NCBI RefSeq assembly: GCF_002843175.1
Contig: NZ_PJEO01000053.1
Span: 1-35,625 of the forward strand
DNA from: Confluentibacter flavum
Lineage (GTDB): Bacteria; Bacteroidota; Bacteroidia; Flavobacteriales; Flavobacteriaceae
Direction of reading: 5' to 3'
DNA length: 35,625 bases
Shown: positions 34,191-35,560 of the stretch, one piece after another
Position numbering within the stretch: the first letter of the stretch is position 1
Layout of the letters: each line of letters starts with the position of its first letter
The notes under the pieces: generated by a model
Database searches by the model: none
What the model was told of the DNA's origin: nothing
Seen by the model: the letters and a program-made list of their open reading frames with translations, nothing else
Made by a program: the position numbers and the translations under genes

Positions 34191-34308
34191 TATGGTAAAC
34201 ACCATGTATAAAAAATGCTAGTTTTAGCTAACATAAAGGTTGTTGCGTGTTTGCTGGCTTCCGATTTTCCTTCGGATAATCCTCGCCTCAAACACGCAAC
34301 TATCCAAG
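34191..34308 (+). repeat. Left part of a large imperfect palindrome interrupted by an IS110-family element
   Basis: The core is an exact 12-bp inverted repeat, GTTGCGTGTTTG (34242-34253) and CAAACACGCAAC (34289-34300). Nested inside it is TCCGA (34260-34264) / TCGGA (34272-34276). Outside it, on the left, TATGGTAA and ATGTAT lie at 34191-34210. Their expected right-hand partners are missing here but occur at 35539-35560, beyond the IS. There is no coding potential. It starts 11 bp after the DUF6155 stop codon. Confidence 0.75.
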
Positions 34309-34333
34309 AACTGTGTTAAAAAACAAGTAATTA

Positions 34334-35314
34334 TTAATTTAAATTCACTAAAACACTTCTATAGTTCTGATCATATATCAACCCTGATTTTGCTAAGGCA
34401 AATGCTTGTTTTAAAAGCTTATTACAGACAGCTATCAATGCTACTTTTTTACTCTTTCCTTTTGCTACAATTCTATTAAAGATGTCTCGACATGCCTTAT
34501 TATGTTTCTTGGCAGAGAGACTGCACATGAACAATGTTTTTCTTAATCGTCTATTTCCCATTTTACTTATCCTTGGTCTAGACCTTATACTGCTACCTGA
34601 CTGTCTTATCATAGGGGTCAGACCTGCAAAAGAGCAAAGCTCTGAAGCTTTGTTGAAGCGTTCAAAACCTCCTGTCAGAACAATCAATAACATACCTGAC
34701 CTTCTCCCTATTCCAGGAATACTCTCCACCCGTGTAAGTAGATCTTGATTGTCTTGTTTTACCAACTCCAGTAATGAACCTTCTAGTTTATCTATCTCGT
34801 TTTTCAAGTATTTCAAACTCCTTTTTAGTGACCTTACCACATTGCCACAGGGAGAACCCATGGACTCTTCTGTCTGTAACTTGTTTTTAAGTGCTGTCGC
34901 TTGTTTTGTATATAAGTTGGTCAGGCCTATGATTTGAGAACAAGCTATTTGAGTGCCACTCTGGCCTTTCCACAGACGAAGTTCAGCCCCAGAGCTTACG
35001 GCATATTCATAGATCATATGTGAGTCTCTTTTGTCTGTTTTTATTTTTGTCAATCGCATCTGGATAAAGCGTTTTATGGACAAAGGATTCTCAACACTTA
35101 CAGCGACTCCTTTTTCATATAAATAATAGGATAGGCGTAAGTGATAAACTCCCGTAGATTCCATCACGCAATGAGAAGACTTGTTGGTTAATCTCAAAAA
35201 CTTTTTAAAACCGGATAGGTCATTTTTAAACTGATAATGCTTACTATCTGATCCCGTAACATCGAAGACATCTTTACTTATGTCTATTCCGAAATAATTT
35301 GTATTTTCACTCAT
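34334..35314 (-). CDS. IS110 family transposase (DEDD)
   Basis: The 326-residue RNA-guided recombinase carries the RuvC-like DEDD residues: D11 (FGIDISKD), E52 (VMESTGVYH), and D94/D97 (KTDKRDSHM). The C-terminal transposase 20 domain (PGIGRRSGMLLIVLTGGFERF, then ELCSFAGLTPMIRQSGSS) holds the probable catalytic serine in the QSGSS segment. It is full length and intact. In the best studied relatives (IS621) the protein works with a bridge RNA made from the non-coding end. The long 5' non-coding region and short 3' region place it with the IS110 rather than the IS1111 group. Confidence 0.93.
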   Translation of the reverse strand: MSENTNYFGIDISKDVFDVTGSDSKHYQFKNDLSGFKKFLRLTNKSSHCVMESTGVYHLRLSYYLYEKGVAVSVENPLSIKRFIQMRLTKIKTDKRDSHMIYEYAVSSGAELRLWKGQSGTQIACSQIIGLTNLYTKQATALKNKLQTEESMGSPCGNVVRSLKRSLKYLKNEIDKLEGSLLELVKQDNQDLLTRVESIPGIGRRSGMLLIVLTGGFERFNKASELCSFAGLTPMIRQSGSSIRSRPRISKMGNRRLRKTLFMCSLSAKKHNKACRDIFNRIVAKGKSKKVALIAVCNKLLKQAFALAKSGLIYDQNYRSVLVNLN

Positions 35315-35341
35315 CTGTATGAAGTTTACGAAAAAAGTGGT

Positions 35342-35479
35342 CTACTAGCTTTTCTGCATCTTAAAAACGAGATCTAAAGTCTCACAGAACTGTTCGAAAT
35401 AATAGTAGCAAAGAGAGGGGATTGTCATGGAAAACGAGATCGCAGTCTCAATACACGAAATAACCTTAATCCTCTCTTT
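35342..35479 (-). ncRNA. Predicted bridge RNA (seekRNA) of the IS110-family element
   Basis: Two adjacent stem-loops lie upstream of the transposase. The 5' one pairs 35410-35423 (AAAGAGAGGGGATT) with 35468-35479 (AATCCTCTCTTT), one bulge. The 3' one pairs 35342-35347 (CTACTA) with 35403-35408 (TAGTAG), plus TTCTG/CAGAA inside. Both end in a GAGA/TCTC hairpin and hold large internal loops. In RNA sense, the 5' loop carries GUGUAU, equal to the target bases before the CT core; its 3' side has UCCA, complementary to TGGA after the core. The second loop carries ACAGUUCU, equal to the right end of the element with the core; its 3' side UUUAAG can pair with CTTAAG at the left end. RNA ends are not determined. 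Confidence 0.72.
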
Positions 35480-35538
35480 TTGTTCTTTCTGATTTGATAC
35501 TTAATTTATAACTTTATATTTGATAAGGCTAACTTAAG

Positions 35539-35560
35539 ATACACATACACCTTACCACAT
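35539..35560 (+). repeat. Right remnant of the palindrome split by the IS110-family element
   Basis: ATACACATACACCTTACCACAT followed by AT contains ATACA and TTACC(AC)ATA. These are imperfect inverse partners of ATGTAT and TATGGTAA at 34191-34210. Joining it to 34308 restores an outer arm around the 12-bp inverted repeat. Confidence 0.55.

What the first reader, a model, noticed from the sequence alone, without database searches (positions are those of the whole stretch)
34309..35538. IS110-family element whose bridge RNA guides can be read against its own ends and its own target
The transposase-sense strand gives, at the insertion site, GTGTAT-CT-TGGATAG, and at the joined element ends, ACAGTT-CT-TAAGTTAG. 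The non-coding region folds into two loops. The first contains GUGUAU on its 5' side and UCCA on its 3' side (complement of TGGA). The second contains ACAGUUCU on its 5' side (8 nt identical, including the core) and UUUAAG on its 3' side, which pairs with CTTAAG with one G-U wobble. Four independent guide segments thus fit the layout known for IS621-type bridge RNAs: left guide equal to the top strand, right guide complementary to it. This gives a readable target rule for a Bacteroidota IS110 element.
Basis: partly seen in the sequence, partly recalled or inferred. Interest (0 to 1): 0.85.

Follow-up and report, generated by a model that had tools for sequence, protein, structure and literature searches.

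The report
RNA-guided insertion sequence in cassette sites

Summary
The element is real: an IS110-group insertion sequence on the minus strand, best delimited as 34306-35538 (1233 bp), with a 326-aa DEDD/Tnp_20 recombinase and an upstream two-loop bridge RNA whose helices covary in 41 relatives. The guide-target reading holds beyond the window: in 58 elements, left target guides covary with left flanks, and in 37, right target guides with right flanks, above re-paired controls. The proposed target with a shared CT core is not supported. Uninterrupted sites, including the same cassette in another genome and four copies of the repeat subtype in the window's genus, read GTGTAT-GG/GA (or close variants) without CTT. 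CTT therefore belongs to both ends of the element, inserted at GTGTAT^GGATAG. In that register both loops line up, and target (AT, GG, GT...) and donor (TT) share no fixed core. The target is an attC-like site of single-orientation cassette arrays, near a tyrosine recombinase below the TIGR02249 integron-integrase cut-off. New variant of a known kind, analogous to IS1111 elements that target attC. Sequence inference only; nothing was tested at the bench, and rare CTT-bearing sites without an element keep the CT reading alive as a minority view.

The parts
34306..35538 (-). IS110-group insertion sequence, 1233 bp, CTTAAG...ACAGTTCTT; left end at 35538, right end at 34306
   Evidence: Ends set by comparison with uninterrupted sites and by 58 related elements; longest exact inverted repeat between the terminal 40 nt is 5 nt
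34334..35314 (-). IS110 recombinase gene, 326 aa
   Evidence: PF02371 6.2e-22, PF01548 4e-18; phmmer hits ISCro4 9t56 7.1e-34 and IS621 8wt6 7.2e-34
35330..35489 (-). Predicted bridge RNA: outer helix, target-binding loop, donor-binding loop
   Evidence: 41-sequence alignment: 96.2% of cells paired, 10 pairs with changes on both sides; ends of the transcript not determined
35451..35460 (-). Left target guide UUUCGUGUAU; last 6 nt identical to left target GTGTAT (35544-35539)
35427..35434 (-). Right target guide UUUUCC plus core-facing AU; UCCAU pairs ATGGA of the uninterrupted target
35385..35394 (-). Left donor guide AACAGUUCUG; ACAGUUCU identical to the right end ACAGTTCT(T)
   Evidence: Per-position identity 0.84-1.0 at positions 1-8 in 37 elements
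35356..35367 (-). Right donor guide UUUUUAAG pairing the left end CTTAAG, then core-facing AU and handshake-like positions GC
   Evidence: 0.92 paired (G-U allowed) when AAG faces CTT; handshake-like positions pair the target at 71 of 74
35539..35556 (-). Left part of the interrupted attC-like repeat, ending GTGTAT
   Evidence: Compare intact repeats
34198..34305 (-). Right part of the interrupted attC-like repeat, GGATAGTTGCG...ATACATGGTGTT
   Evidence: Same subtype intact in L117; 93% match elsewhere in own genome, C19
33595..34179 (+). Cassette gene, DUF6155 protein (start codon uncertain)
   Evidence: PF19652 7.1e-9; same cassette without the element in G172

Best explanation
An IS110-group element moves as a circle with abutted ends (..ACAGTTCTT|CTTAAG..). 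Its upstream non-coding region gives a bridge RNA. One loop reads the target: the left guide pairs the bottom strand of about 8-10 nt left of the insertion point, and the right guide pairs the top strand of about 5-6 nt to the right. The other loop reads the circle junction in the same register. Insertion is between GTGTAT and GG/GA of an attC-like cassette site and adds no target bases; CTT at both ends is element-borne. Target and donor share no fixed core dinucleotide. Shown from sequence: the ends, uninterrupted sites, helix covariation, guide-flank covariation. Inferred: transcription of the RNA, the circle, strand order, and absence of a core requirement.
For: Recombinase and solved relatives. 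Five relatives about 89% identical in the same target. Uninterrupted sites without CTT: 146 of 150 listed places of 151 (hand tally), all but two of the listed places (read by eye), same cassette L112 and four copies in L117. Left target guide against flank 377/477 versus 267.5 +/- 10.7, and without the window class 323/414 versus 256.8 +/- 7.2. Right target guide 160/185 versus 145.4 +/- 2.4, and donor-loop handshake-like positions 71/74 versus 64.7 +/- 1.3, p 1e-4 (G-U allowed, 37 elements). Right end CTT in 53 of 53 elements with a found right end. Natural right-end|left-end junctions: CTT|CTTAAG in L036 and three places of G112, CTT|CATAAG in G206. Bridge-RNA helices. ISEc21 of the IS110 family inserts without duplication and its circle has abutted ends (PMC11187229, section 12 read).
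Against: No RNA or circle was observed. Position 9 is poorly matched by the left guides (0.33 in the target loop; 0.03 in the donor loop). Beyond its first six bases the right target guide does not settle the frame: position -3 pairs slightly better with CTT present (1.00 against 0.87, Watson-Crick) and position -2 much better without (0.00 against 0.47). The first handshake-like base pairs both partners (own target 0.89, own donor 1.0), so only the second discriminates. A few sites carry CTT, CT or ACTT without an element (G053, G076, G023, L044, two in own genome), as a CT-core excision would leave. Five of 53 left flanks end in TT like the donor. Tandem junctions may come from insertion beside an existing copy rather than from circles. 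In one search the number of further pair types (21) is no higher than in shuffles (20.9).
Confidence: 0.72

Rival explanations
1. Canonical IS621-type reading: target and donor share a CT core; the element entered a pre-existing GTGTAT-CT-TGGATAG site and excises through CT.
For: Rare sites with CTT and no element exist: G053:C12 left half, G076:C14, L044, G000:C37. In IS621 the core is included in all four guides (PMC11208160, passages).
Against: CTT is missing from 149 of 150 listed intact left halves and from all but two listed right halves, from the same cassette and the same repeat subtype. The target loop has no CU at the core positions, and its guides fit the CTT-less target in the same register as the donor loop.
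Confidence: 0.1
2. The circle carries one CTT (ACAGTT-CTT-AAG); it is cut with a stagger around CTT, the target is cut blunt, and gap filling gives CTT at both ends.
For: Explains both element ends and the CTT remnants as reverse reactions; left and right donor guides both cover CT.
Against: No single-CTT junction among the nine matches in 395 genomes; the four that belong to this family read CTTCTT (three) or CTTCAT (one) (the pattern misses some ends, e.g. L036). Six single-CTT hits in viral contigs are unrelated sequence. ISEc21 circles have directly abutted ends.
Confidence: 0.14
3. The shared target reflects a few old insertions carried about with mobile cassettes, not repeated guided transposition.
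For: Targets are parts of mobile-looking cassettes; relatives of the window's cassette occur in several genomes.
Against: Elements with different guides sit at matching different targets (L009, L010, L040, L041, L074, L078); elements with identical or near-identical bridge RNA in one genome sit beside different cassettes (L018/L062, L022/L064).
Confidence: 0.04

Closest known systems
IS621 / ISCro4 (IS110 family bridge-RNA recombinases)
   Same: DEDD plus Tnp_20 recombinase (phmmer about 7e-34), upstream non-coding RNA with target and donor loops, same guide order, handshake-like positions (PMC11208160 and PMC11208158, passages seen; nothing read on ISCro4)
   Different: IS621 target and donor share a CT core read by all guides; here the target core varies (AT, GG, GT...) and the donor is TT
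ISEc21 (IS110 family, seekRNA)
   Same: Upstream non-coding region, insertion without extra bases, circle with abutted ends (PMC11187229, section 12)
   Different: Its target is a conserved stretch inside IS3 transposase genes; here an attC-like repeat
IS1111 members that target attC (ISKpn4, ISPst6, ISPa25)
   Same: Target recombination sites of gene cassettes with an RNA guide (PMC11187229, section 9 and passages)
   Different: IS1111 members have the RNA downstream and subterminal inverted repeats; here the RNA is upstream and no exact inverted repeat longer than 5 nt was found
Integron gene cassettes / attC
   Same: Single-orientation arrays, cassette ends complementary to each other, a tyrosine recombinase near the array end
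   Different: Recombinase below the TIGR02249 cut-off; GTTRRRY rare, 7 of 167; about 10-nt end boxes

Membership tests
IS110 family (IS110 group) | DEDD_Tnp_IS110 and Transposase_20 domains | tested here: met
   both above Pfam cut-offs
IS110 family (IS110 group) | Catalytic acidic residues and SGSS serine | tested here: met
   Alignment to ISCro4 (GIDISK, ME, KTD..D, SGSS aligned); which residues are catalytic is taken from IS621
IS110 family (IS110 group) | Longer non-coding region upstream of the gene | tested here: met
   224 nt upstream, 28 nt downstream
IS110 family (IS110 group) | No subterminal inverted repeats (against IS1111) | tested here: met
   Longest exact inverted repeat between terminal 40 nt is 5 nt; imperfect repeats not tested
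IS621-type bridge RNA | Two-loop structured RNA | tested here: met
   five helices, 96.2% paired, 10 pairs changed on both sides against 5.0 +/- 0.9 in shuffles
IS621-type bridge RNA | Guides match target and donor, left like top strand, right complementary | tested here: met
IS621-type bridge RNA | Core dinucleotide shared by target and donor and read by all four guides | tested here: not met
   not filed as IS621-type in this respect
IS621-type bridge RNA | RNA expressed and bound by the recombinase | not testable with these tools
   Needs RNA sequencing or pull-down
Integron (the target system) | IntI integrase | tested here: not met
   TIGR02249 184-210 bits against cut-off 265 in three array recombinases; NF040815 (tyrosine recombinase/integron integrase) 201-230 bits, one of three over its cut-off 220
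Integron (the target system) | attC R' box GTTRRRY | tested here: not met
   7 of 167 right ends and 7 of 156 left ends; the consensus itself is recalled
Integron (the target system) | Array of same-orientation sites whose cassette ends are mutually complementary | tested here: met
   in eight stretches every detected repeat on one strand; 7.1 of 10 identical against 3.7 +/- 0.14 re-paired, 136 pairs
Integron (the target system) | attI site and cassette promoter | not tested
   -

The most novel reading that the evidence does not exclude
A family of IS110 bridge-RNA elements specialised on the recombination sites of a so far undescribed integron-like cassette system of Flavobacteriaceae, with two subfamilies aiming at opposite ends of the same attC-like site, and able to recombine target and donor that share no core dinucleotide.
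Probability: 0.5. Interest if true: 0.8.

Novelty: new variant of a known kind. Interest (0 to 1): 0.64.

Why it matters
In IS621 a core shared by target and donor is strongly preferred (PMC11208160, passages). A natural family in which the target core varies while the donor core is fixed would widen the set of sites that bridge recombinases can write to, and makes the core requirement directly testable. The elements also point to cassette arrays, dozens of sites long, with a recombinase below the integron-integrase cut-off. The IntegronFinder 2.0 passage seen (PMC9024848) names Salinibacter as the Bacteroidetes member with a complete integron, and its main text has no word beginning Flavobacter; a review lists integrons in Bacteroidota without detail (PMC8618304, passage).

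Tried and rejected
Rfam scan of the window: nothing at gathering threshold. Single-sequence folding: no signal. A TGTGTATCTTGNNTAGTNGCGTG site elsewhere in the own genome: none, up to 3 mismatches. Viral contigs: no double-CTT junction; six single-CTT hits are unrelated sequence. Uninterrupted allele by a genus search around L007: the call failed. The idea that the base before CTTAAG (G or T) comes from the donor was dropped: intact sites vary in the same way. Classifying the target as canonical attC was dropped. Literature: no paper on IS110 in attC-like sites of Flavobacteriaceae, or on integrons there, appeared among the rows listed by searches (best rows only; subscription journals and preprints are mostly not held).

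Dropped rows: of 58 elements, 5 lack a found right end and were left out of right-side counts; 53 of 58 guide/flank rows were kept after removing duplicates and flanks under 10 nt. Of the 49 bridge-RNA references printed, 41 were aligned, chosen by hand for diversity; L084 was left out as a composite. 37 of 41 entered the donor-loop counts. Element detection used motif patterns that require the target loop and CTTAAGTT or ATTAAGTT, so diverged members are missed; the right-end pattern required CAGT.CT with the last T optional. Cassette pairs are neighbouring repeats 200-3500 bp apart with readable ends; undetected repeats between them count as mismatched pairs.

Full report
Anatomy. The minus strand of 34306-35538 reads CTTAAGTTAG... 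to ...ACAGTTCTT and holds one 326-aa gene. The protein carries PF01548 and PF02371; the only two solved sequences that phmmer finds are ISCro4 (7.1e-34) and IS621 (7.2e-34), and in the ISCro4 alignment the acidic motifs and the SGSS serine line up. There are 224 nt of non-coding DNA before the gene and 28 nt after it, and no exact inverted repeat over 5 nt at the ends, which is the IS110 rather than the IS1111 layout as described in PMC11187229 (passages). A DNA search of the own genome found this one complete copy and one partial relative.

Relatives. The genome-contig scan gave ten loci: five about 89% identical in protein (two Formosa, Bizionia, Algibacter, Lacinutrix) and five at 52-59%. 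DNA relatives occur in 119 of 397 sampled genomes of the window's family. A motif search of the loci then held gave 58 elements with readable guides and left flanks, 53 of them with a found right end.

Bridge RNA. The window sequence alone folds no better than shuffled sequence (z 0.48). In 41 aligned relatives a five-helix structure (outer helix, two loop stems, two guide-separating hairpins) is paired in 96.2% of cells, with 10 pairs changed on both sides against 5.0 +/- 0.9 in shuffles and a covariation score of 0.174 against 0.089; sliding the partner by one to three bases drops pairing to 47-57%. The number of further pair types (21) does not exceed shuffles (20.9).

Guides. Each target loop has 11 nt between the conserved AAGGTTA (or AAGATTA) and the hairpin. 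Its first 10 nt align with the 10 nt left of the element, with identity 0.76-0.97 at positions 1-7, 0.62 at position 8, 0.33 at position 9 and 0.21 at position 0; any other register is worse (0.74 against at most 0.51). Own pairs beat re-paired ones: 377 of 477 against 267.5 +/- 10.7 (maximum 310 in 20,000), and 323 of 414 against 256.8 +/- 7.2 (maximum 289) without the window's class. Examples of different guides with different targets: L009 UAUGCAU, L041 UAUAGCC, L040 UCUACC, L078 UUAUAC, and L074, whose right guide AACU goes with a right flank AGTT. Right target guides pair the right flank at 160 of 185 positions (G-U allowed) against 145.4 +/- 2.4 (37 elements). Not every element fits: L026 matches poorly on the left, and the left flank of L036 is another element's right end. 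Shuffles ignore relatedness, so the figures are indicative.

Where the insertion point is. Intact copies of the repeat read otherwise. With a variable gap allowed between TGTGTAT and TTAGTNGCGTG, 149 genomes gave 151 places (sum of the table), 150 listed; by hand tally 146 have exactly two bases (nearly always GG or GA), one has CTTGG, three have other fillings. For the other end of the repeat, all but two of the listed places read ATACACG-N-TGTTG with one base; the exceptions carry TCTT and TACTT (read by eye). The cassette interrupted in the window occurs in G172 (542 of 648 aligned columns identical), where the site reads GTATAT-GAAAAGTTGCG, and the window's repeat subtype occurs four times in a genome of the same genus as GTGTAT-GGAAAGTTGCG. 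None of these is the window's own locus without the element; that allele was not found. The simplest reading is that the element is CTTAAG...ACAGTTCTT and went in between GTGTAT and GG without adding target bases. The published ISEc21 inserts without duplication (PMC11187229, section 12).

Register of both loops. With these ends the donor loop falls into the same register as the target loop. The left donor guide equals the right end at positions 1-8 (0.84-1.0) and fails at position 9 (0.03); position 9 is also badly matched in the target loop. The right donor guide pairs the left end best (0.92) when its AAG faces the first CTT. The two positions after the core of the donor loop pair target positions 7 and 6 in 71 of 74 cells (p 1e-4), and those of the target loop pair the donor (1.0 and 0.78), like the handshake guides of IS621 (PMC11208158, passages). 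The control is mixed: the first of these bases also pairs its own partner (0.89 and 1.0), only the second does not (0.08 and 0.22). Past its first six bases the right target guide by itself does not decide between the frames. With the uninterrupted target, the window's right target guide pairs UCCAU with ATGGA.

Core. In IS621 the CT core is shared by target and donor and read by all four guides (PMC11208160, passages). Here the last two bases of the left flank are AT (20), GT (13), GG (6), TT (5), AA (4), GA (2), AG, TG and GC (1 each) in 53 elements, while the right end is CTT in 53 of 53. Natural right-end/left-end junctions in tandem copies read CAGTTCTT|CTTAAG in L036 and three places of G112 and CAGTACTT|CATAAG before a truncated left end in G206; the other five of the nine matches are unrelated sequence, and none is a single-CTT junction. 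A circle with abutted ends is therefore the simplest donor. A few sites have CTT, CT or ACTT but no element (G053, G076, G023, L044, and two in the own genome); a third odd site of the own genome, with CTGG, lies just outside the window at C55:36233. They may be excision remnants; they also keep the CT-core reading alive as a minority view.

The target. The repeat is about 125 bp, starts YAACG..GTGTAT and ends ATACACGNTGTT in its commonest form. The window class inserts at its first half-site and the TATACACG class at its second. In eight array stretches every detected repeat has one orientation (47 of 47 in G018, 46 of 46 in G072). The first bases of each cassette tend to be the reverse complement of its own far end: 7.1 of 10 identical on average over 136 neighbouring pairs against 3.7 +/- 0.14 re-paired; 85 of 136 reach 8 or more. 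This is the logic of integron cassettes with longer end boxes. In eight genomes searched for PF00589, each with several tyrosine recombinases, one of 376-394 aa lies about 1-6 kb from detected repeats in seven loci of six genomes; the own genome has one (413-codon open frame, 268 aa from its first ATG) near a repeat on C32, and G144 was not examined further. Three of them score 184-210 bits on the integron-integrase model (cut-off 265), in two stretches, and 201-230 bits on NF040815 (cut-off 220, one of three over it); that the break marks the IntI-specific insert is my inference from recall. GTTRRRY is met by 7 of 167 right ends. I call the sites attC-like and do not file the system as an integron.

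Verdict. What is new is the register without a shared core, supported across a family, and the target system.

Noticed in passing
L058-L061, L126-L143 (e.g. G018:C1:2718000-2797999): Large single-orientation gene-cassette arrays with an attC-like repeat and about 10-nt complementary cassette ends (with a frequent G/A difference at the eighth base after GTT), near a tyrosine recombinase below the integron-integrase cut-off with about 100 extra residues before its SAM-like domain; possibly an undescribed integron-like system.
   Followed up: partly
L119 (G112:C2:53500-61500): Two 54-bp miniature derivatives with both IS ends, each directly beside a right end of a related element (CAGTTCTT|CTTAAG...CAGTTCTT|TGTTG).
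   Followed up: partly
G053:C12:172353, G076:C14:5942, G023:C32:4627, G000:C37:54009, G000:C53:33405: Attachment-like repeats carrying CTT, ACTT or CT at the IS insertion point but no element: possible excision remnants.
   Followed up: partly
L084 (G097:C22): Composite element: window-type left end and target loop followed by sequence like a TATACACG-type donor loop and right end.
   Followed up: no
L134-L137 (G018): A cassette of about 430 bp starting GTTATGTACA occurs at least five times in one array (five paired copies; six start boxes).
   Followed up: no
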